Source: a virus
Reading direction: 5' to 3' (one strand)
IMG/VR virus record: IMGVR_UViG_3300035703_000312
Coordinates: 1-31,489 of that record
Length of the DNA: 31,489 nucleotides
Below are positions 1 through 31,489 of this stretch, in pieces. The position numbers were made by a program, and so were the translations under genes. The stretch's first letter is position 1. Each line of letters opens with the position of its first letter. Under the pieces are notes generated by a model, which had not been told where the DNA came from, made no database searches, and saw nothing but the letters and a program-made list of their open reading frames with translations.

Positions 1-127
1 ATGGCGCGAATAAACGTGTTCGCCGCCGTGTTCAACGCTGTGATAACACCGTTCATAGCGTCGATAAAGAAAACCCTGATTCCGCTGACGATTTCACCCA
101 ACCCGTTAGCCCACGTCGCTGTCGCTT
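1..127. repeat. Terminal direct repeat, left copy (circular-contig overlap)
   Basis: These 127 bases are identical to 31363-31489. The tape-measure reading frame is continuous when one copy is removed, which shows the repeat is the overlap of a circular assembly rather than two biological copies. A length of exactly 127 equals a k-mer size commonly used by assemblers, so it is most likely an assembly signature; a true short terminal redundancy cannot be excluded from sequence alone. Confidence 0.93.
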
Positions 128-12022: not shown

Positions 12023-13540
12023 CTATCCGAAAAACTGTGGTACGACTTCTTCCATTCTAGCGACCGTTGCCCTATCGACTGCGAGGATAGCGGCGACAGC
12101 GGCGTCGATTTTGCGCGGCGAATAACGGTTCTCCTTGACGATGCGCGGCCCATAAGAGTCTAGTTTAGTCACGCTATTCTCCAAATGTCTTGCAAGCAGC
12201 GGATCGCTGTCGTGAACCAGCCTTCTTTCCATAACCGCGTCATAGAATTTCGCGCAAGCCGGCACCATCCGGCGTGGACTAGTGGAAGGCCATTCCACAA
12301 TCGGCAGGCCGGCTTCCTCTAAAACCTGCATTGACCGTTGCCACCGGAACGGGTCGCACGCGATTTCACGCACTTTTGGGTGTTCCTGACAGAACTTGAT
12401 AATTGTTTGTTCCACATCAGCGATATCGACACGCCAGTTATCGTCGTCGTGCTCTAAATCTTTCTCCCACGCCTTCACCATGAAAACACGGACAGGGTCA
12501 TCCGTATTTTTAGGGACAGCGGCACCCACGATGACGGAGGCGTCACCGGAGAACGAACCATCGAAGCCCAAAATAATCTCATCGTCCGCCGTAATCTCAA
12601 AATCCTCGGCGCAGGCGTCCCAAGCGCCAGCAGGTAACCACGAGTATTGGGAAGACACCCATTGGTTACAGCGTTTCGTACGAAACTCCGGCTCGGGTGT
12701 TCTACGGACTGCTGATTGAAAGTCTGCCGGGTCGCTGAGATCGCCGAAGCCAGGATTCGCTCTACGCCAAGTAGTTTCCTCACGGTGGTCGCCGTCGTCT
12801 TCCCACCACGCCATGAAGAAAGACGGATCTTCCACTTCGCCTAGCGATACCTGCTTCCCGTAGTTGTATAGCGTGTAAGCGATGGAGTCGCGGCCGGTCG
12901 CGTCTGCTTTGACGCCTGCTGTTGTGATTGCGACCAAGGTGGCTAAGTTTCCTCTAGCACCCATAGCGAGGGACATAACATCGAACAGTTCGCGATTCGG
13001 TTGCGCGTGGAGTTCGTCGAACAAAACGAAGTGAGGGTTCAAACCTTCCTTCGAGTAGGCTTCCGCGGACAGGACGCGATAAACCGACTGGCCAGGCAGG
13101 TACTCAATCGCGTCGCGATAAGTCTTCGTTATCGCCGTAAGTTCAGGGCTGGCTTCGATGATACGTTTCGCGTCGGCGAAAACGATTCGGGCCTGCTCCT
13201 TCTCCGCCGCTACAGAATAAACTTCGCCTCCGCGCGGCCCAACCAACAAAGAATAAAGCGCAAGGACAGATCCGATAGCAGACTTCCCTGATTTTCGAGG
13301 CATACCGACAAGATTGACGCGGTTACGGAGCCCACCGTTTTCGTGGGCAAAAATATGACCGATAAGGTTTTGTTGCCAATCCCGCAGATTTAGCGGCTCC
13401 CCAGCCTTCCCAGCGACAGAATCCTTCGTAATAATGCCGAAGGCTTCAGCAAACTTCATCACCGATGGGCCTTCGCCGTTGACGATCGATTCTTCCGGCA
13501 CCGGTGTCAACCAACGAGGCGGCCAACTATCGTTTTGCAT
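12023..13540 (-). CDS. Terminase large subunit
   Basis: This 505-residue packaging motor has an N-terminal ATPase. LVGMPRKSGKSAIGS at about 77-90 is the Walker A region and HFVLFDELHA at 170-179 is Walker B followed by the catalytic Glu. The coupling region TLVAITTAG lies near 205. The C-terminal RNase H-like nuclease starts with LGFDGSFSGDAS, which carries the first metal Asp, and continues with IACDPFRWQ and the terminal DAAVAAILAVDRA. It overlaps the upstream small P-loop gene by 14 bases. The sequence is HK97-like; the HNH gene upstream in the same block suggests cohesive-end packaging, which is inference. Confidence 0.93.
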   Translation of the reverse strand: MQNDSWPPRWLTPVPEESIVNGEGPSVMKFAEAFGIITKDSVAGKAGEPLNLRDWQQNLIGHIFAHENGGLRNRVNLVGMPRKSGKSAIGSVLALYSLLVGPRGGEVYSVAAEKEQARIVFADAKRIIEASPELTAITKTYRDAIEYLPGQSVYRVLSAEAYSKEGLNPHFVLFDELHAQPNRELFDVMSLAMGARGNLATLVAITTAGVKADATGRDSIAYTLYNYGKQVSLGEVEDPSFFMAWWEDDGDHREETTWRRANPGFGDLSDPADFQSAVRRTPEPEFRTKRCNQWVSSQYSWLPAGAWDACAEDFEITADDEIILGFDGSFSGDASVIVGAAVPKNTDDPVRVFMVKAWEKDLEHDDDNWRVDIADVEQTIIKFCQEHPKVREIACDPFRWQRSMQVLEEAGLPIVEWPSTSPRRMVPACAKFYDAVMERRLVHDSDPLLARHLENSVTKLDSYGPRIVKENRYSPRKIDAAVAAILAVDRATVARMEEVVPQFFG

Positions 13541-13937
13541 AGTAGTCCTCGATAACTTTCCTCGCGACGATTTTGTTTCTTTCCGGCCGCTCCCCTAATC
13601 TTTCCAAGCAAATCTGTTTACCAGGATCGACTTCCATAATACGAGCGTTCATCGTGCGATACATTCGCCGATCGTTTGCGGAAGGATCCGTGTGAATAAT
13701 CCAAACATTTAGGTAGCGTTCCCCTTGTGCAACCGATAACGCTTGCTTCACGGCCGCGTTCCGAGCAGCCCTAGCGACGGAGCGCAGTTTCTCGTCGTAG
13801 TCGTGATGGGTTGCGCTGTCAACGGTCAGCGCTAAGGCGATTCTGTCCATGTCTATAACTATGTCGCCTAGTGTTGCGTGTTGCGCTACGTGCGTTGATT
13901 TGCCGGAGCATGGAGCGCCGGTCACAACCGTAATCAT
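13527..13937 (-). CDS. Small P-loop kinase-like protein
   Basis: This 136-residue protein begins MITVVTGAPCSGKSTHV, an ideal Walker A (residues 7-15), followed by DIVIDMDRIAL, which resembles the start of polynucleotide- or zeta-toxin-like kinases. A lid-like basic segment lies near NDRRMYRTMNAR, and LERLGERPER occurs late. It is too short for a motor and probably phosphorylates a small molecule or a nucleic-acid end. It is squeezed between small and large terminase, overlapping both. It may act on packaged DNA or belong to the modification pathway encoded just upstream. The substrate cannot be told from sequence. Confidence 0.7.
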   Translation of the reverse strand: MITVVTGAPCSGKSTHVAQHATLGDIVIDMDRIALALTVDSATHHDYDEKLRSVARAARNAAVKQALSVAQGERYLNVWIIHTDPSANDRRMYRTMNARIMEVDPGKQICLERLGERPERNKIVARKVIEDYYAKR

Positions 13938-14386
13938 TGCTTGTTGCGTAGCGCCAGGACTTCCTCCAACTTGGAAGCAGCCCGAACCTCCGCGACACCC
14001 AAGCGAGAACGGTCGGCAGGCGTGAAACCGAGCAAACTAAGATTACGTTCGATTTGTGCGTCTAACGATCTCAAACCACGCCGCTCCGTAGGGTCATTGT
14101 TCGTCATAACACGGATACGCAGGTTCCAGCGCTCGTCAACCATCTCACACGTCATCAACAGCAGTTCTTTATCGGTGACCGGACTAATCCAACTAATACC
14201 CGACGACCAAATATCTTGCCAAAGCTCGCCGCCGTAAGTCAGTAGCGGCCGGTGCGGATCCGGCACGTGAGAAGCCCCAGGTAATATTTCTACCGTCTTC
14301 GCGTCAGGTAAAGGTCGTTTCCCAGGATTACCGAGCATACGTTTCTGCTCAATCGGTTTCGGAGGCCTCCCTTGCTGAGCCATCAA
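13934..14386 (-). CDS. Terminase small subunit (P27-like)
   Basis: This 150-residue protein starts with MAQQGRPPKPIEQKRMLGNPGKRPLPD, the typical RPxKP...GNPGKRPLP opening of P27-family small terminases that recognise the packaging site. A helical body follows, containing LWQDIWSSGISWISPVTDKELLLM and ERNLSLLGFTPADRSRLGVAEV, the latter a strong family phrase. It overlaps the P-loop gene before it and the kinase gene after it by four bases each, so all are translated together. Confidence 0.88.
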   Translation of the reverse strand: MMAQQGRPPKPIEQKRMLGNPGKRPLPDAKTVEILPGASHVPDPHRPLLTYGGELWQDIWSSGISWISPVTDKELLLMTCEMVDERWNLRIRVMTNNDPTERRGLRSLDAQIERNLSLLGFTPADRSRLGVAEVRAASKLEEVLALRNKQ

Positions 14387-14952
14387 GCACCTGCTTCATC
14401 GGCCGGCAAGTCAATCGCCAAGCGAATCATTCTTGCGATGGCGGAAGGCTCTTCATAAGTTGTATCGATCGCGAAAGAAGGTATGCCGCTCTCAAACGCT
14501 TTATCGAACATACGGTGGCTCGCTGTGGCCCGTCCCTTTACCCACGAAGGGTTTTGTTCGGTGCCGCGTTTACGTCGCCTCTCAGGGGCATTAGAGGCCG
14601 TTAGAAGCACAAGTAGTAGGTCGGTTCGCGCCGCCAAAGTCAACAGGAACCTCTCGTTTGCTAAACGTGCGCCCTCCCCAAAAATAATCTGGGGGAGATC
14701 GTCCTCCGCCGCCCACGCCACAGCGTCAGGGTTTACGCTCATACCCAAAGCATCAGTCCCAGAGAAAGTGCCGCGCGTCCGGCCCAACCTAACGCCTGTC
14801 CAACGGCCGCCGGTCAACGGCTCCCCCCACAATTGCCCACGCAACCTTGCCGCGCCCCCCACGACGTATGGCGCGCACAACTCACCCATAACAGTTGTTT
14901 TGCCGACGCCAGGTTCCCCTATTAGATAAACCGCCACACTTGAATCCAACAA
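14383..14952 (-). CDS. P-loop NTPase/kinase linked to the TET/JBP gene
   Basis: This 189-residue protein has a Walker A GEPGVGKTT at residues 12-20 near its N-terminus. An acidic strand IIFGEGARLANERFL lies near 110. RRRKRGTEQNPSWVKGRATASHRM (about 144-167) is a basic lid-like segment that also resembles DNA-contact regions. P-loop kinases are known partners of TET/JBP-type genes in phages, where they can phosphorylate hydroxymethyl bases on DNA. This gene follows the dioxygenase directly and precedes small terminase with a four-base overlap. The start is uncertain: TTG at 14952 has GGAG ten bases upstream, and a GTG five codons later is an alternative. Kinase activity on 5-hydroxymethyluracil is inferred from context. 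Confidence 0.68.
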   Translation of the reverse strand: MLDSSVAVYLIGEPGVGKTTVMGELCAPYVVGGAARLRGQLWGEPLTGGRWTGVRLGRTRGTFSGTDALGMSVNPDAVAWAAEDDLPQIIFGEGARLANERFLLTLAARTDLLLVLLTASNAPERRRKRGTEQNPSWVKGRATASHRMFDKAFESGIPSFAIDTTYEEPSAIARMIRLAIDLPADEAGA

Positions 14953-14966
14953 AAAACAACTCCGCT

Positions 14967-15866
14967 CTAGGCGTTTGCCTTTTTCGCAACGATTTTCGTG
15001 TCACCGTTAGAACGGCCGCTAGTAATCTTCTGCTTCAAGATTTCGATACTGTCACCGACCATACCTGCCTCGCGATCGGCGCGGCGCTTACGAGCTTCCC
15101 CGATTTCCACAGCGTAAGTGTGACAATCCTTCATGCCCTTCTTGGCGTAGAAGACGATTGAGTAACGGTAGCCGTCCTTCTGACGCAAAGCCATCGGTGT
15201 CACGCCGTGAACATACCGGTACCCGTTGAACCACAAAGCCCAACCGTCCTTACACGCAATCGTCATGTCGTACTCCGGCATATGTAAGTTGCCGCCGTCC
15301 ATACCGCGCCTCACAACCGGCATAGCCGACCAAGTATCAAAGTTTGCGCCGTCCCGATGATACGGCAACGGGCTCGACTGATTGATGACGCCAGAAGTCC
15401 AAAGAGAATCCTCCGTCATCCGCCATTCCGGTAAAACTGCGTCGATTTTTTGATAATCCTCATCGAACACTTCTGGTAACTGTTCGCGCAGGTAAGACGC
15501 CAAAACATCGGCGGTATCGTTCAACGCCATCTGCGATTCAGGATCTTCGTAAGACAAAGATGTTGGCGTACAAGCTTCGCGTTGAAGAACAGCCGATCTT
15601 GTAGTCATACCGAACGTCCTAGAAACATTCCTCATACCCGAAGATCGCAAAGTAGTCGAATAATGTGTTTTCAAAACAGCGGCGCGTAACGGGGTTATCT
15701 TCTCTGGGTATGGGCCGTACATAAGAATCGCTTCGCCGGTAAAAGCGTCACGGTAAATACCAGCCTCCGTGATGTTCGGAATCAAATCCGGTACAGTTTC
15801 CCCAACGACCAGTTCCGCCTCCTTCTTTTCCAGCGAACGCGTTATTTCATATTCTGCGAGTTTCAC
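14967..15866 (-). CDS. TET/JBP-type 2-oxoglutarate/Fe(II) dioxygenase
   Basis: This 299-residue enzyme is predicted to hydroxylate the 5-methyl group of a DNA pyrimidine. The iron triad is visible: YHRDGANFD gives H170 and D172, and YRYVHGVTPM gives H220. R234 in GYRYSIVFY is placed to bind 2-oxoglutarate. HRD followed closely by N matches the TET/JBP arrangement, and GGNLHMPEYD before ALWFNG is typical of the phage and JBP branch. An N-terminal region of about 150 residues and a basic tail (KIVAKKANA) flank the core. No cytosine-5 methyltransferase is seen, so thymine is the likelier substrate. GTG at 15866 overlaps the ParB-like stop as GTGA. Confidence 0.82.
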   Translation of the reverse strand: MKLAEYEITRSLEKKEAELVVGETVPDLIPNITEAGIYRDAFTGEAILMYGPYPEKITPLRAAVLKTHYSTTLRSSGMRNVSRTFGMTTRSAVLQREACTPTSLSYEDPESQMALNDTADVLASYLREQLPEVFDEDYQKIDAVLPEWRMTEDSLWTSGVINQSSPLPYHRDGANFDTWSAMPVVRRGMDGGNLHMPEYDMTIACKDGWALWFNGYRYVHGVTPMALRQKDGYRYSIVFYAKKGMKDCHTYAVEIGEARKRRADREAGMVGDSIEILKQKITSGRSNGDTKIVAKKANA

Positions 15867-16552
15867 AATGCTTCCTCTACTAGTTTGCGAACCACATCGG
15901 CGTTATTGTCCACGCCGAACTTCTGTGCGAGCTGTGCCAACATGTCAACCATCTTCGCGTAATCGGTTTGTGGATAGTAAAGAAGGATTCCCCTCGTCGC
16001 CCGATTCACATACCGCTCCAAAAATTCTTGATAGGTTGCTTCCTTCTCGACCGACAACTCTAAGTTTCCTGACTTCTTGGAATCTCGTTCGCCAAGATCG
16101 CCGCCCTGGTTTGGGACAGCCGTAACGGTCATGGTGTGTTCATCGAGGAGCGCCCGAAAGTCCTCTACGTCGATATCTGCGAAACCGACCGACTCTAAAT
16201 CATCAGCGGATATTTCCTCAAACGCCGCCACCAATTCCTGGACGTCCCACTCCCCTAGCTGACCGATCCGGTTGTCCGCGATGGAATACGCTGTCGCCGT
16301 TTCCACGTCATCATCCACAAACACAACAGCAATCTTTTCCCAACCCAAAGCCAACGCCGCCTGGTACTGGTGGTTGCCAGCAATAATTTTTTTGGTTTCA
16401 CGGTGCGCGACAATCGGCTTCCGCTGACCGAACCGTTCGTAACTCTTACGGATCGCCTCCACGTCACCCTTACGAGCGTTCCGATCCGCCGGTTTCAGGT
16501 CTGCGATCGGCGTAGATAAGACAATCAAATCCTTTGCGATCTGTTCCGCCAT
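15863..16552 (-). CDS. ParB/Srx-fold protein
   Basis: This 229-residue protein has a ParB-like domain in its first 100 residues. IADLKPADRNARKGD is the first motif, then SYERFGQRKPIVAH, then IIAGNHQYQAALALGW, which carries the GNH signature at about 59-61. The last 120 residues are less conserved and include an acidic helical linker and a C-terminal helix. In phages, stand-alone ParB-like proteins are repeatedly found beside DNA methyltransferases or TET/JBP genes. They may be nucleotide-dependent DNA-binding switches or nucleases. Translation is coupled to the dioxygenase (GTGA). AGAAAGG precedes its ATG, so it appears to open this sub-operon. Confidence 0.8.
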   Translation of the reverse strand: MAEQIAKDLIVLSTPIADLKPADRNARKGDVEAIRKSYERFGQRKPIVAHRETKKIIAGNHQYQAALALGWEKIAVVFVDDDVETATAYSIADNRIGQLGEWDVQELVAAFEEISADDLESVGFADIDVEDFRALLDEHTMTVTAVPNQGGDLGERDSKKSGNLELSVEKEATYQEFLERYVNRATRGILLYYPQTDYAKMVDMLAQLAQKFGVDNNADVVRKLVEEAL

Positions 16553-16660: not shown

Positions 16661-17023
16661 TTATGATTTCTGGACCCACTCCCCATATGTGCCTCCCCCC
16701 AACGGTTTATCGCCTCTACTGGCGTTACATGACCTGTGAGCTGGTAGTAATGCGCTGTTGGGATCGCCTGGTGTGACGTGGTCTGCTTGCCAGGGGTCAT
16801 TAGGGTTCGCGCCCTTACCGCAGAGGTGACAGATGACTGCCGTCGCCCTTATATGTTTCGCCCTTCGTCGATATTCCTTGTTGTAGTACATGGATTTTTT
16901 TGCGCGGCGATCGGGTGTGTCTTGTAATCTGTTTTGGATTCTGGAGCGCGCGGCCGCGCAGTTATCGCACCGGTTGTGCCGGGATAGTCCCCCACAGTCA
17001 AGACATGGTTTCATAAATCCCAT
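16661..17023 (-). CDS. HNH endonuclease upstream of the terminase block
   Basis: This 120-residue protein starts with a Cys-rich part (CLDCGG...CDNCAAARSRIQNR) and then the HNH core. The core comprises ICHLCGKGANPNDPWQADHVTPGDP and LLPAHRSCNASRGDK, giving paired Cys, the catalytic DH and the HxxCN motif. ATG at 17023 overlaps the stop of the preceding mini-gene as TAATG. HNH proteins next to terminases in HK97-like phages help terminase cut at cos. Here the modification genes lie between it and small terminase, so this role is inferred, and a homing or general nuclease is possible. Confidence 0.8.
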   Translation of the reverse strand: MGFMKPCLDCGGLSRHNRCDNCAAARSRIQNRLQDTPDRRAKKSMYYNKEYRRRAKHIRATAVICHLCGKGANPNDPWQADHVTPGDPNSALLPAHRSCNASRGDKPLGGGTYGEWVQKS

Positions 17024-17151
17024 TAGAGCTCGATTGTTTCCGTGGCTAACACTTGGTAACAGAGAGGGCAAAGCGCTTCTTCGTTGTCTAATATGCCGTG
17101 CGCTAGGTCTTCCTCATAGCCGCAAGCACAGTAATAGATGTTCGCGGTCAT
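17023..17151 (-). CDS. Mini zinc-ribbon protein
   Basis: A 42-residue peptide containing YYCACGYEED and LCPLCYQ, two cysteine pairs about 21 residues apart that should bind one zinc ion. AGGGAACAACCG precedes the ATG, and its TAA overlaps the HNH start, so it is well supported as a gene despite its size. Function unknown; it may be a small nucleic-acid or protein-binding knuckle made together with the HNH protein. Confidence 0.65.
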   Translation of the reverse strand: MTANIYYCACGYEEDLAHGILDNEEALCPLCYQVLATETIEL

Positions 17152-24967: not shown

Positions 24968-25156
24968 TCATTTCGTCGCCCCGAAAACAAGCAAGCCGGC
25001 GATAATCAAAGTTTGCGCCCACATCGCGGAAAGCGCAGTTATTAGTAGCCGCCGGCTAATCACGACAACGCCGATTTGCTTTATGTAAGTGGATCGCCGA
25101 CGGCGATCGCCGACCTCCACTTGTTCACCTATTTCTAGGTTTTTGAAGTAACCCAT
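24968..25156 (-). CDS. Basic protein with C-terminal membrane helix, first early gene
   Basis: A 62-residue protein: a polar, basic N-terminal half (EIGEQVEVGDRRRRSTYIKQ) followed by a hydrophobic segment LLITALSAMWAQTLIIAGLLVFG. It is the first gene downstream of the divergent control region at 25157-25303, so it should be made very early. AAGGGAAAATC precedes the ATG. Function is not known; its place suggests host takeover or membrane action, which is inference. Confidence 0.58.
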   Translation of the reverse strand: MGYFKNLEIGEQVEVGDRRRRSTYIKQIGVVVISRRLLITALSAMWAQTLIIAGLLVFGATK

Positions 25157-25303
25157 GATTTTCCCTTCATTTTGGTTAGCGTCAATCGACGCGGCTTAAG
25201 CCTAACCGCGACCGGCGACATTGACCCAATATTTCTAAAAAAAACTTAAAAAAAAATATCGAATCGTTTAGGAAACCTAGACGGCTACCGGTAGCCTTGA
25301 GTC
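25157..25303. promoter_or_regulatory. Main divergent control region of the early operons
   Basis: This region separates the leftward early genes from the rightward small-protein operon. It contains a hairpin GCGTC-AATC-GACGC next to the palindrome GGCTTAAGCC (about 25179-25202), and two A-tracts near 25237-25258. GTTTAGG lies at 25266-25272, and the palindrome GGCTACCGGTAGCC at 25283-25296, seven bases before an ATG at 25304. The last three elements copy the 6.6 kb control region with identical spacings. A -10-like TAGCCT sits at 25292-25297. Confidence 0.65.
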
Positions 25304-25336
25304 ATGAATGAAACCACCCGATTGAAAGGAACCAAA

Positions 25337-25585
25337 ATGAAAGACGTAAGCGTTGTGGAAACTGCCCAAATGACCAAGTACTACCGAGGCGAGTTTTCCT
25401 ACCTAACGAACCGCACGATCCTCGATGTTCGCGCTATGTATCCAGAGGAAATGGAACTGTTTCTTTGGAGCGGAAAGCCTGGTGCCGTGTTTCTTCTAGA
25501 CGACGGAGGGTTATTTATCCCCACCTCTGACGTCGAAGGCAACGGTATCGGTCACCTGACGATCCAGCGAGGCAAAAAAGCGTGA
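25337..25585 (+). CDS. Hypothetical protein, first gene of rightward operon
   Basis: An 82-residue acidic alpha-beta protein starting MKDVSVVETAQMTKYYR and containing YPEEMELFLWSGKPGAVFLLDDGGLFIP, not recognised. ATG at 25337 is preferred since AAAGGAACC stands just upstream. An in-frame ATG at 25304 would add MNETTRLKGTK, eleven residues that parallel the eleven at 6703-6735, and lacks a ribosome site. It leads a six-gene operon of small proteins. Confidence 0.6.
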   Translation: MKDVSVVETAQMTKYYRGEFSYLTNRTILDVRAMYPEEMELFLWSGKPGAVFLLDDGGLFIPTSDVEGNGIGHLTIQRGKKA

Positions 25586-25623
25586 GCGCCCAAGCGACCG
25601 GCAACCACCCGAAAGGAACCGAA

Positions 25624-25941
25624 ATGATAGAAGAAACGCTATACAAGCCCTGGATAATCTTCGACCACGAGTACCAAGATTATTCTTGCGAAGAACACGC
25701 GATCGATTACGCAAACACCATCGATGCTCAAAAGTACGGTGACACCGCTTACGGTATCGCCAAAGAGGGTTACGGTATGGTCGCCGATATTTATGAGATC
25801 GCTTCGTTCGCTCGTGACGAAACCGATTACCCAGCCGCTTGCGTTTGCGGACGATACCTCGACATACGCTTGACCGCCGAGGGACAAAATTATCTGGCCG
25901 AAAACGACTTCCCTGCCTGGCTCAAAGCACTCCACCAATAG
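25624..25941 (+). CDS. Hypothetical acidic protein
   Basis: A 105-residue acidic protein starting MIEETLYKPWIIFDHEY, with CEEHAIDYANTI, a Gly/Tyr-rich central part and a C-terminal helix (LAENDFPAWLKAL). GAAAGGAACCGAA precedes the ATG. A GTG at 25582 overlapping the preceding stop is a weaker alternative. No family was recognised. Its high negative charge and small size are features often seen in DNA-mimic or inhibitor proteins; this is a loose inference. Confidence 0.58.
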   Translation: MIEETLYKPWIIFDHEYQDYSCEEHAIDYANTIDAQKYGDTAYGIAKEGYGMVADIYEIASFARDETDYPAACVCGRYLDIRLTAEGQNYLAENDFPAWLKALHQ

Positions 25942-25953
25942 AAAGGAAACACG

Positions 25954-26163
25954 ATGAGTATGTACCAACTAACCGCAAAAATCGAAGGCGGCACCAACGA
26001 AGCGTATTTGTTTGACGCTTTATCCGATGAGGAAGCAACCATGACCGCCATCGGTTACATAATGGACGCGGCCTACGCGCACAAGTCGGGTGCTTGGGCG
26101 AAGGGTGCTATATCCCTCAGCGATCCTGACGGCAACGTCATCCGCACTATGAACGCGAAGTAG
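25954..26163 (+). CDS. Hypothetical small protein
   Basis: A 69-residue protein, MSMYQLTAKIEGGTNEAYLFD..., with strands flanking a helix SDEEATMTAIGYIMDAAYA and ending in a strand ISLSDPDGNVIRTM. AAAGGAAACACG precedes the ATG. The fold pattern looks like a small alpha-beta sandwich. Not recognised. Third gene of the rightward operon. Confidence 0.6.
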   Translation: MSMYQLTAKIEGGTNEAYLFDALSDEEATMTAIGYIMDAAYAHKSGAWAKGAISLSDPDGNVIRTMNAK

Positions 26164-26175
26164 AAAGGAAACACG

Positions 26176-26340
26176 ATGAACCGCCCAACAGAGAAAGATA
26201 TCGACACCACCGCCTCCGGTTACTACCGGTTGCCCTGCGACGGTCGCCACGACCACTCGTACCACTTCTATATGTACTACACCAAGCGCGACATTATGAA
26301 AATGTGGCGCGAAGAACACCCGAAAGGAAAAAACAAATGA
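26176..26340 (+). CDS. Hypothetical mini-protein rich in Tyr and His
   Basis: A 54-residue protein beginning MNRPTEKDIDTTASGYYRL and containing CDGRHDHSYHFYMYYTKRD, unusually rich in aromatic and His residues. AGAAAGGAAACACG stands right before the ATG and its stop overlaps the next ATG as ATGA, so it is well supported despite its size. Function unknown. Confidence 0.62.
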   Translation: MNRPTEKDIDTTASGYYRLPCDGRHDHSYHFYMYYTKRDIMKMWREEHPKGKNK

Positions 26341-26639
26341 ACGACAAATGGCGTGAACTAATCGACAACCCACCTAAAGGCCTCGACGCCATCGCGGACT
26401 TATTTGACCTGTCGACCAACCACGAATACCCGACACCGGCAACCCTGTTCATCGATCTCATCGGATACACGACTGAGGAATACGGCTATGTGCTTGTGAA
26501 AGATATTAGCGTCTACGTCAGCCGGTTCAACTATCTTGAACTGGGCCGGCTCGGTCAAGCACTTGACGACTACACGGATCGCCCACAAGAGGGATTCCAA
26601 TACGTCAGCGACATTCTGGAAGCGGAGATGGACGACTAA
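26337..26639 (+). CDS. Hypothetical acidic protein
   Basis: A 100-residue acidic, mostly helical protein starting MNDKWRELIDNPPKGLDAIAD and ending ILEAEMDD. GAAAGGAAAAAACAA precedes ATG at 26337. The upstream extension of the frame is rejected because it runs inside the preceding gene. It overlaps the next gene by one base. No family was recognised. Confidence 0.6.
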   Translation: MNDKWRELIDNPPKGLDAIADLFDLSTNHEYPTPATLFIDLIGYTTEEYGYVLVKDISVYVSRFNYLELGRLGQALDDYTDRPQEGFQYVSDILEAEMDD

Positions 26640-30855: not shown

Positions 30856-31489
30856 TACGCCCTCGCAAATACTGGGCCTGAAGTGCGCTCATACTTCCTA
30901 ATAGCGTTGACTATTTGTTCGCCTATCTGAGCGCCGTTAGTACCCATTCCGGCGTTGACGGTGATGTTGTAGGTTCCCCCCATCGAACCCATCTTGTTGA
31001 GAGGAATAATCGCCTCCGGCCCAGCCTCACCGATAAGCGCTGTAGTCGGCCCCATAACAATTCCGCCGCTAGCCATCGCAGGAATGTTACCGAAAATCTG
31101 CCTGCCGAAGCGATCGGTGTAGAAACCTCGTTGCTGTTGCGTTCCGCTGATGAAGGAATCAGAAGCGCCGAAACTAGTAGAGCCTTGCGTTCTGCCAGGC
31201 CGGTCGAAGATGTCGGATATTCCTGTGACATCGACCTCGGGAAAAACCATACCGTCGTACAAGCCGATAAGGTTTAGCGGTATTTCTTGTAGGTTACCGA
31301 TTCCTCGATAAATCGCTCCCAACGCGCCAGGTAATTTTCTGCCTTGTTCTAAGATGCCGTTTATGGCGCGAATAAACGTGTTCGCCGCCGTGTTCAACGC
31401 TGTGATAACACCGTTCATAGCGTCGATAAAGAAAACCCTGATTCCGCTGACGATTTCACCCAACCCGTTAGCCCACGTCGCTGTCGCTT
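30855..31489 (-). CDS. Tape measure protein, C-terminal part (runs off the right edge)
   Basis: This minus-strand frame is open to the right edge and continues in frame into the 5' part at 1-1412 once one 127-bp repeat is removed. It has a long amphipathic and hydrophobic helix region, then a Gly/Ser-rich linker around the segment with FDRPGRTQGSTSFGASDS. The C-terminal domain has MASGGIVMGPTTALIGEAGPEAIIPLNK, a phrase found at the end of very many tape-measure proteins, and finishes IVNAIRKYERTSGPVFARA. An ATG at 31463 is internal and not the gene start. Its TAA overlaps the minor tail ATG. Confidence 0.92.
   Translation of the reverse strand, partial: ATATWANGLGEIVSGIRVFFIDAMNGVITALNTAANTFIRAINGILEQGRKLPGALGAIYRGIGNLQEIPLNLIGLYDGMVFPEVDVTGISDIFDRPGRTQGSTSFGASDSFISGTQQQRGFYTDRFGRQIFGNIPAMASGGIVMGPTTALIGEAGPEAIIPLNKMGSMGGTYNITVNAGMGTNGAQIGEQIVNAIRKYERTSGPVFARA
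31363..31489. repeat. Terminal direct repeat, right copy (circular-contig overlap)
   Basis: Exact duplicate of bases 1-127. Dropping one copy leaves a 31,362-bp circle. It lies inside the tape-measure gene, so the left edge of the window is not a biological genome end. Confidence 0.93.

What the first reader, a model, noticed from the sequence alone, without database searches (positions are those of the whole stretch)
12023..16552. TET/JBP dioxygenase, ParB-like protein and two P-loop proteins interleaved with the terminase genes
In transcription order the genes are ParB-like, TET/JBP-type dioxygenase, P-loop NTPase, small terminase, second P-loop kinase and large terminase. From the ParB-like gene to the large terminase all junctions overlap, except the 14-base gap between dioxygenase and first P-loop gene. 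The dioxygenase shows H170-x-D172, H220 and R234. Associations of TET/JBP genes with ParB-like and P-loop genes have been described in phages, and P-loop kinases phosphorylating hydroxymethyluracil in DNA are known. What stands out here is the weave with the packaging genes in a small 31-kb genome lacking any visible cytosine methyltransferase. I infer oxidation of thymine in phage DNA, possibly phosphorylated and modified further, timed to or read by packaging.
Basis: partly seen in the sequence, partly recalled or inferred. Interest (0 to 1): 0.86.

Follow-up and report, generated by a model that had tools for sequence, protein, structure and literature searches.

The report
Phage thymine-oxidising DNA-modification cassette
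A small virus of water-dwelling actinobacteria carries, beside its DNA-packaging genes, a ParB-like protein, a TET-family enzyme that probably oxidises thymine in its DNA and a kinase that may phosphorylate the product; the layout is known from other actinobacterial viruses, and relatives swap the kinase for sugar-adding enzymes.

Summary
In detail: every gene, junction and catalytic residue is as described, and the window is a complete circular genome (127-bp terminal repeat). The 14967-15866 protein is a TET/JBP dioxygenase by profile, by 32 homologues with invariant HxD, H and R, and by fold: the first 26 PDB hits are TET or CMD1, with AlkB far behind. The first P-loop protein is an NMP/shikimate-kinase-like kinase, distantly related to the phage M6 5-hmdU DNA kinase; 31 of 39 environmental relatives lie near a TET gene. 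Best explanation: post-replicative oxidation of thymine to 5-hydroxymethyl-U, then phosphorylation, with the ParB-like protein as accessory. Corrections: the weave with packaging genes is the normal layout in actinophages (KayaCho: ParB-TET-kinase-TerL; Tonitrus published as a thymidine hypermodification system). The second P-loop protein resembles terminase-linked kinases of phages where no TET was detected, so it is probably not part of the pathway. A link to packaging beyond co-expression is untested. Added here: the TET-terminase slot is swappable (kinase, glycosyltransferases or nothing; at least 9 changes on the TET tree), the same ParB family partners DpdA in the same position, and phiPsal1 shows the empty site. 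New member of a known kind; modification chemistry unproven.

The parts
15863..16552 (-). ParB-like (ParB_N/Srx-fold) protein, 229 aa; accessory of the cassette
   Evidence: PHROG 620 1.8e-33, Pfam ParB_N 7.5e-4; directly upstream of TET in 40 of 42 loci; same family as the ParB partner of DpdA in phage CRB2, hhalign 100%, 2.9e-40
14967..15866 (-). TET/JBP-family 2OG-Fe(II) dioxygenase, 299 aa
   Evidence: Pfam Tet_JBP 4.9e-8; AlphaFold model pLDDT 84, pTM 0.78; Foldseek first 26 PDB hits all TET or CMD1, best 1.6e-11
15351..15359 (-). codons H170-R171-D172, the HxD iron-binding motif
   Evidence: H170 and D172 invariant in 32 homologues
15207..15209 (-). codon H220, third iron ligand
   Evidence: invariant in 32 homologues; aligns with the distal His of NgTET1
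15165..15167 (-). codon R234, 2-oxoglutarate-binding arginine
   Evidence: invariant in 32 homologues; aligns with the Arg of NgTET1
14383..14952 (-). P-loop nucleotide kinase 3 (PF18751), candidate 5-hydroxymethylpyrimidine DNA kinase, 189 aa
   Evidence: Pfam 2.8e-25; invariant GxPGxGK, GTD and EGxRL motifs in 38 homologues; kinase fold; shares PHROG 800 with the M6 5-hmdU DNA kinase
13934..14386 (-). terminase small subunit
   Evidence: Pfam Terminase_7 7.7e-9; 40% identical to phiPsal1 TerS
13527..13937 (-). second P-loop protein, AAA_33 / polynucleotide-kinase-like, 136 aa; probably packaging-linked, not part of the base chemistry
   Evidence: Pfam AAA_33 4.8e-8, PHROG 4581 3e-35; relatives beside terminases; among fetched loci only L005 has it
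12023..13540 (-). terminase large subunit
   Evidence: TerL_ATPase 8.2e-21, TerL_nuclease 1.2e-17; 63% identical to phiPsal1 TerL
16661..17071 (-). HNH endonuclease, upstream border of the cassette
   Evidence: PHROG HNH 5.9e-8; 45% identical homologue between PDE and TerS in phiPsal1, which lacks the cassette
1..127 (.). first copy of the 127-bp direct terminal repeat (circular genome)
   Evidence: exact match to 31363-31489
31363..31489 (.). second copy of the 127-bp direct terminal repeat

Best explanation
The ParB-like, dioxygenase and first P-loop genes form a DNA-base hypermodification cassette. The TET/JBP dioxygenase oxidises the 5-methyl group of thymine in newly replicated phage DNA to 5-hydroxymethyl-U. 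The P-loop kinase then phosphorylates that hydroxyl, giving 5-phosphomethyl-U either as the final base or as an activated intermediate for an unidentified step. The ParB-like protein loads or positions the enzymes on phage DNA. The modified DNA is packaged by the terminase made from the same transcript and resists host restriction. Shown by computation: enzyme families, intact catalytic residues, folds, conserved order, complete genome without C5-methyltransferase, dUMP hydroxymethylase or amino acid:DNA transferase. Inferred: thymine as substrate, phosphate as product, the ParB role, co-transcription, anti-restriction function.
For: TET fold and invariant HxD/H/R. Kinase family PF18751: in environmental viral contigs with at least 4 kb upstream, 31 of 39 members have a TET, 26 a ParB and 19 an amino acid:DNA transferase in the held region, against 89 TET-bearing records of 50,697 phages. 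Relation to M6 gp54, which Pfam-hmdU DNA kinase: shared PHROG 800 and hhalign 83%, 8e-6. Kinase fold. Close TET relatives carry TET-associated glycosyltransferases in the same slot, i.e. another way to tailor a hydroxymethyl group. No C5-methyltransferase in the window and none in 33 of 37 TET contigs. Genomes with reported thymidine hypermodification (M6, ViI, phiW-14) have a dUMP-hydroxymethylase family member and no TET match; the TET phages tested have the reverse. Kinase treatment of 5hmdU DNA blocks many restriction enzymes (PMC7653180). Cassette absent from phiPsal1 between HNH and TerS.
Against: Kinase-family members also sit before TerL in phages with no TET match (Colbert, Imvubu, Zenteno07, CRB2), so kinase and TET are not obligate partners. 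One of the three nearest relatives (L007) has a C5-methyltransferase on its contig, so 5-methylcytosine is not excluded. No amino acid:DNA transferase or glycosyltransferase of the TET-associated kind was found with the cassette. No phage of this TET clade has published base-composition data in the papers I could read.
Confidence: 0.6

Rival explanations
1. The dioxygenase acts on 5-methylcytosine made by a host or co-infecting methyltransferase, so the modified base is a 5-hydroxymethylcytosine derivative.
For: The nearest solved structures are 5mC enzymes (TET2, NgTET1, CcTet, CMD1). 4 of 37 TET contigs, one of them a close relative, encode a C5-methyltransferase. TET-associated glycosyltransferase also works on hydroxymethylcytosine in T6-like phages (PMC13390438).
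Against: No methyltransferase in this complete genome nor in the four TET phage records tested; the cassette-linked kinase and amino acid:DNA transferase belong to 5hmU chemistry.
Confidence: 0.17
2. The first P-loop protein is a packaging-associated nucleotide kinase or small-terminase substitute, unrelated to base chemistry; the dioxygenase alone leaves plain 5hmU.
For: PHROG 800 is named 'terminase small subunit'; in most of the 393 phage records with this family it lies just before TerL, and most of them show no TET match. Some close TET relatives have nothing between TET and TerS (L030-L036), so TET does not need a partner.
Against: The window has a separate small terminase. The model is an NMP/shikimate-kinase-like fold. 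In environmental contigs the family tracks TET and amino acid:DNA transferase, often away from TerL. M6 gp54, a 5-hmdU DNA kinase by Pfam, carries the same 'terminase' label.
Confidence: 0.2
3. The position beside the terminase is only a convenient insertion site at the start of the late operon; the ParB-like protein and the modification have no functional link to packaging.
For: phiPsal1 lacks the cassette at the same site and keeps HNH-TerS-TerL. DpdA/preQ0 cassettes occupy the same position in CRB2 (PMC6392294). Arthrobacter TET genes lie late in the record (about 40-44 kb).
Against: TerS/TerL follows in 31 of 36 TET loci with enough flank, more constant than a random insertion site would suggest.
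Confidence: 0.5

Closest known systems
ParB-TET-kinase-TerL left end of Mycobacterium phage KayaCho (similar: Acadian, Adawi)
   Same: Same order ParB, TET, PF18751 kinase, TerL; TET 44% identical; no C5-methyltransferase in KayaCho or Acadian
   Different: KayaCho has the kinase directly before TerL, with no separate small terminase or second P-loop gene between them; 70-kb genomes; TET often annotated as queuine tRNA-ribosyltransferase
Thymidine hypermodification system of Rhodococcus phage Tonitrus / Gordonia phage Wooper
   Same: ParB, TET (Tonitrus 48% identical, the best isolate match) and PF18751 kinase, before TerL (PMC11955845)
   Different: They also encode an amino acid:DNA transferase (PF18724 in Tonitrus) and a further protein; the window has none
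5-hmdU pathway of Pseudomonas phage M6, Salmonella ViI, Delftia phiW-14
   Same: A P-loop kinase of the same remote-homology family in M6 (PHROG 800) acting on a 5-hydroxymethyl base
   Different: They make 5hmdU as a nucleotide with a thymidylate-synthase-like enzyme and have no TET match; the window has TET and no such enzyme
ParB-DpdA-QueCDE cassette of Mycobacterium phage CRB2 (Rosebush type)
   Same: Same ParB family, same position before PF18751 kinase and TerL
   Different: The writer is DpdA (7-deazaguanine insertion; dPreQ0 measured in Rosebush, PMC6884629), not a dioxygenase
JBP1/JBP2 thymidine hydroxylases and base J
   Same: TET/JBP superfamily; proposed thymine to 5hmU step, with glycosyltransferases in close relatives
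   Different: The window has a kinase instead of a glucosyltransferase in the slot; substrate not tested
Pontimonas phage phiPsal1
   Same: Same phage group: 31 kb circular, TerL 63%, portal 62%, PDE 66% identical
   Different: Lacks ParB, TET, PL1 and PL2; has an N6 DNA methylase that the window lacks

Membership tests
TET/JBP dioxygenases (PF12851) | sequence profile match | tested here: inconclusive
   4.9e-8, 32.8 bits against a curated cut-off of 34.9; related phages also fall under it
TET/JBP dioxygenases (PF12851) | HxD...H iron ligands and 2OG-binding Arg | tested here: met
   H170, D172, H220, R234 invariant in 32 sequences
TET/JBP dioxygenases (PF12851) | fold closer to TET than to AlkB or other 2OG oxygenases | tested here: met
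   first 26 PDB hits TET or CMD1 (1.6e-11 to 3.8e-9); AlkB from 3e-7
TET/JBP dioxygenases (PF12851) | oxidises 5-methylpyrimidine in DNA | not testable with these tools
   needs enzyme assay or virion mass spectrometry
P-loop nucleotide kinase 3 (PF18751) | profile match over the cut-off | tested here: met
   89.4 bits, cut-off 27
5-hmdU DNA kinase (PF18748) | profile match over the cut-off | tested here: not met
   no PF18748 match for PL1 at E 0.1; only a remote relation to M6 gp54
5-hmdU DNA kinase (PF18748) | phosphorylates 5hmU in DNA | not testable with these tools
   needs assay
ParB-TET hypermodification cassette of actinophages | ParB directly 5' of TET, terminase downstream | tested here: met
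   window; 40 of 42 and 31 of 36 related loci
ParB-TET hypermodification cassette of actinophages | tailoring enzyme downstream of TET | tested here: met
   PF18751 kinase in the window; glycosyltransferases, other enzymes or nothing in relatives
Amino acid:DNA transferase branch (Tonitrus type) | ADDT (PF18724) present | tested here: not met
   no match in the window, found in Tonitrus as control
dUMP-hydroxymethylase route (M6, ViI, phiW-14) | thymidylate-synthase-like enzyme PF00303 | tested here: not met
   absent in the window, present in M6, ViI, phiW-14
TET plus C5-methyltransferase route (5mC oxidation) | PF00145 methyltransferase in the genome | tested here: not met
   none in the complete genome
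Second P-loop as 5hmU kinase | co-occurrence with TET | tested here: not met
   only L005 among fetched contigs; isolate relatives beside terminases in phages outside the TET list

The most novel reading that the evidence does not exclude
One ParB-type loader serves several base chemistries. The same ParB family, in the same position before the terminase, is paired with a TET oxidiser here and with DpdA in CRB2, and the gene behind TET is swapped among kinase, glycosyltransferases and nothing. In this genome, which has no transferase of the known kind, the end product would be 5-phosphomethyl-U itself, a negatively charged base not known to me as a final modification in any virion.
Probability: 0.2. 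Interest if true: 0.75.

Novelty: new member of a known kind. Interest (0 to 1): 0.45.

Why it matters
It gives a minimal, complete and small example of a TET-based hypermodification cassette, with close relatives in which only the tailoring enzyme differs and a related cultured phage (phiPsal1) with the empty site. That makes two open questions testable: what the kinase branch makes, and whether the ParB-like protein is a general loader for phage DNA-modifying enzymes. It also shows that public labels ('queuine tRNA-ribosyltransferase', 'terminase small subunit') hide a base-modification system in many actinophage genomes.

Tried and rejected
(1) Reading PL1 as a terminase small subunit, from the PHROG 800 label: weakened, because M6 gp54, a 5-hmdU DNA kinase by Pfam, is in the same PHROG, a separate TerS exists, and the fold is a small-molecule kinase. 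(2) Reading the dioxygenase as queuine tRNA-ribosyltransferase, from the PHROG 6059 label: rejected by fold and motif. (3) Both P-loop proteins as base kinases: kept for PL1, rejected for PL2. (4) 'PF18751 implies TET': rejected, TET-less phages carry it. (5) 'No C5-methyltransferase in the whole group': not quite, 4 of 37 contigs have one. (6) Sequence search of the PDB with the TET profile found the right family, but only at E 0.04-0.12, so the fold search was needed. (7) Promoter and terminator scans around the cassette were at or near chance level; no Rfam match and no tRNA. (8) Iyer 2013, Burke 2021 and Lee 2018/2022 are not held and are cited from memory only. (9) Orion and Rosebush records are not in the collection, so CRB2 was used as the DpdA example. 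CRB2's DpdA gave no Pfam TGT match, so that label rests on the record and PMC6392294.
Full report
CHECK OF THE OBSERVATION. Overlaps are 4 bases (ParB/TET, PL1/TerS, TerS/PL2) and 14 bases (PL2/TerL), with the stated 14-base gap between TET and PL1. The window carries an exact 127-bp direct repeat at its ends, so it is a complete circular genome of 31,362 bp, cut inside the tape-measure gene. Statements about absence therefore have weight. The nearest annotated phage is Pontimonas phage phiPsal1 (31,069 bp, circular; TerL 63%, portal 62%, PDE 66% identical), so the host is probably a freshwater or marine actinobacterium (inference).

THE DIOXYGENASE. Pfam Tet_JBP matches at 4.9e-8, just under the curated cut-off; four related actinophage records also fall under it, so this is a divergent branch. 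50 viral contigs and 89 phage records hold relatives. In 32 aligned sequences H170, D172, H220 and R234 never vary. An AlphaFold model (pLDDT 84, pTM 0.78) finds in the PDB first 26 chains of TET or CMD1 (CcTet 1.6e-11, TET2 3.5e-11, CMD1 1e-10, NgTET1 1.7e-10); AlkB appears only from 3e-7.

THE FIRST P-LOOP PROTEIN. It belongs to PF18751, P-loop nucleotide kinase 3, with invariant GxPGxGK, GTD and EGxRL motifs in 38 homologues. Its model (pLDDT 93.5) resembles Fap7/hCINAP, shikimate kinase, PSTK and adenylate kinase, not a terminase small subunit. PHROG 800 labels the family 'terminase small subunit', but the same PHROG holds M6 gp54 (2e-39), which Pfam-hmdU DNA kinase; profile comparison gives 83%, 8e-6. 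Among environmental contigs of this family with at least 4 kb upstream, 31 of 39 have a TET, 26 a ParB and 19 an amino acid:DNA transferase nearby. Against this, the family also sits before TerL in phages without a TET match: Colbert, Imvubu, Zenteno07 and the DpdA phage CRB2. The kinase reading is therefore likely, not proven.

THE SECOND P-LOOP PROTEIN. It is an AAA_33, polynucleotide-kinase-like protein. Among the fetched loci only the 98%-identical contig L005 shares it; L006 and L007 lack it. Relatives in Gordonia phages and Mycobacterium prophages, which are not among the TET-bearing records, sit near the terminase or at the end of the record, and one is fused to an HNH domain. It most likely belongs to DNA-end or packaging functions.

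THE PARB-LIKE PROTEIN. It lies directly upstream of TET in 40 of 42 loci. The same family (hhalign 100%, 2.9e-40) is the first gene of the DpdA-QueCDE cassette of CRB2, also before PF18751 and TerL (PMC6392294). A ParB domain of this kind also matches a 'DNA methyltransferase' PHROG (498). One ParB type thus accompanies different DNA-modification chemistries; that it acts as a loader is inference.

THE SLOT BETWEEN TET AND TERMINASE. In the window and L005-L007 it holds the kinase. In other relatives it holds a TET-associated glycosyltransferase (Pfam PF20691, 6.5e-38 for the Acadian member), a second family related to it (hhalign 96%, 8.8e-9), several such genes in a row, sometimes an NAD-dependent epimerase, or nothing at all (6 loci). 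On the TET tree the label needs 9 changes, where 6 is the least possible; the kinase group is one clade with 100/100 support. The same oxidised base is apparently finished in different ways by close relatives.

THE EMPTY SITE. phiPsal1 has PDE, an HNH gene 45% identical to the window's, then TerS and TerL, with no ParB, TET, PL1 or PL2. The cassette sits cleanly between HNH and TerS. phiPsal1 has instead an N6 DNA methylase with no counterpart in the window.

SUBSTRATE. The window has no C5-methyltransferase, no thymidylate-synthase-like dUMP hydroxymethylase and no amino acid:DNA transferase. M6, ViI and phiW-14, described as thymidine-hypermodified in PMC6449724, have the dUMP-hydroxymethylase family and no TET match; the window, Acadian, KayaCho and Tonitrus have TET and no such enzyme. 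The simplest reading is post-replicative oxidation of thymine. A C5-methyltransferase does occur in 4 of 37 TET contigs, including the close relative L007, so cytosine is not excluded.

WHAT IS KNOWN. Tonitrus has been published as encoding a thymidine hypermodification system with ParB, TET-like protein, aGPT-Pplase2 and 5-hmU DNA kinase (PMC11955845). Wooper is annotated likewise. KayaCho has the same ParB-TET-kinase-TerL order as the window. Prediction of TET/JBP operons with P-loop kinases in phages goes back to Iyer et al. 2013 (from memory; the paper is not held). In vitro, phosphorylation of 5hmU DNA by a 5hmdU DNA kinase blocks many restriction enzymes (PMC7653180). The gene order is therefore not the novelty; the new points are the swap series in the slot, the shared ParB with DpdA, the empty site, and a complete minimal genome without a transferase of the known kind.

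VERDICT. Real, well identified, and a new member of a known kind. Confidence is 0.6 in the full thymine-to-phosphate mechanism. The TET identity itself is near certain.

Noticed in passing
phage records, e.g. L003:813-1691, L059:810-1766: Gene 2 of KayaCho, Acadian and many cluster B phages, and PHROG 6059, are named 'queuine tRNA-ribosyltransferase' although they match Tet_JBP; the label probably came from the DpdA gene in the same position of Rosebush-type phages.
   Followed up: yes
L072:15686-16249 (M6 gp54), window:14383-14952: PHROG 800 'terminase small subunit' contains the M6 5-hmdU DNA kinase (PF18748) and PF18751 kinases; the name looks like an adjacency artefact.
   Followed up: yes
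window:3846-6612: GT2 glycosyltransferase, unknown protein, cytidylyltransferase-like protein and GT1 glycosyltransferase between major capsid and neck genes; the GT1 and GT2 are shared with phiPsal1, which has no TET, so probably virion rather than DNA glycosylation.
   Followed up: partly
L060 (Microbacterium phage Kozie) 1-3273: TET gene annotated as hypothetical, followed by an unknown gene, a FAD-dependent amine-oxidase-like protein (DAO, 5e-20) and the PF18751 kinase: a possibly different tailoring chemistry.
   Followed up: no
L055 (phiPsal1) 25118-26392: phiPsal1 has an N6 DNA methylase without a homologue in the window, while the window has the TET cassette: related phages with different DNA-modification genes.
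   Followed up: partly
L065, L094, L067, L056: TET-less cluster B phages keep a PF18751 kinase with all key motifs directly before TerL; its substrate there is unexplained.
   Followed up: partly
L008:2567-3577, L010:2539-3546, L016:2604-3611: NAD-dependent sugar epimerase/dehydratase inserted behind the glycosyltransferase in the TET slot, suggesting a dedicated sugar donor.
   Followed up: no
L127: 32-kb contig in an Actinomycetota MAG carries ParB-TET-...-PF18751 kinase-TerL, probably a co-binned phage.
   Followed up: partly
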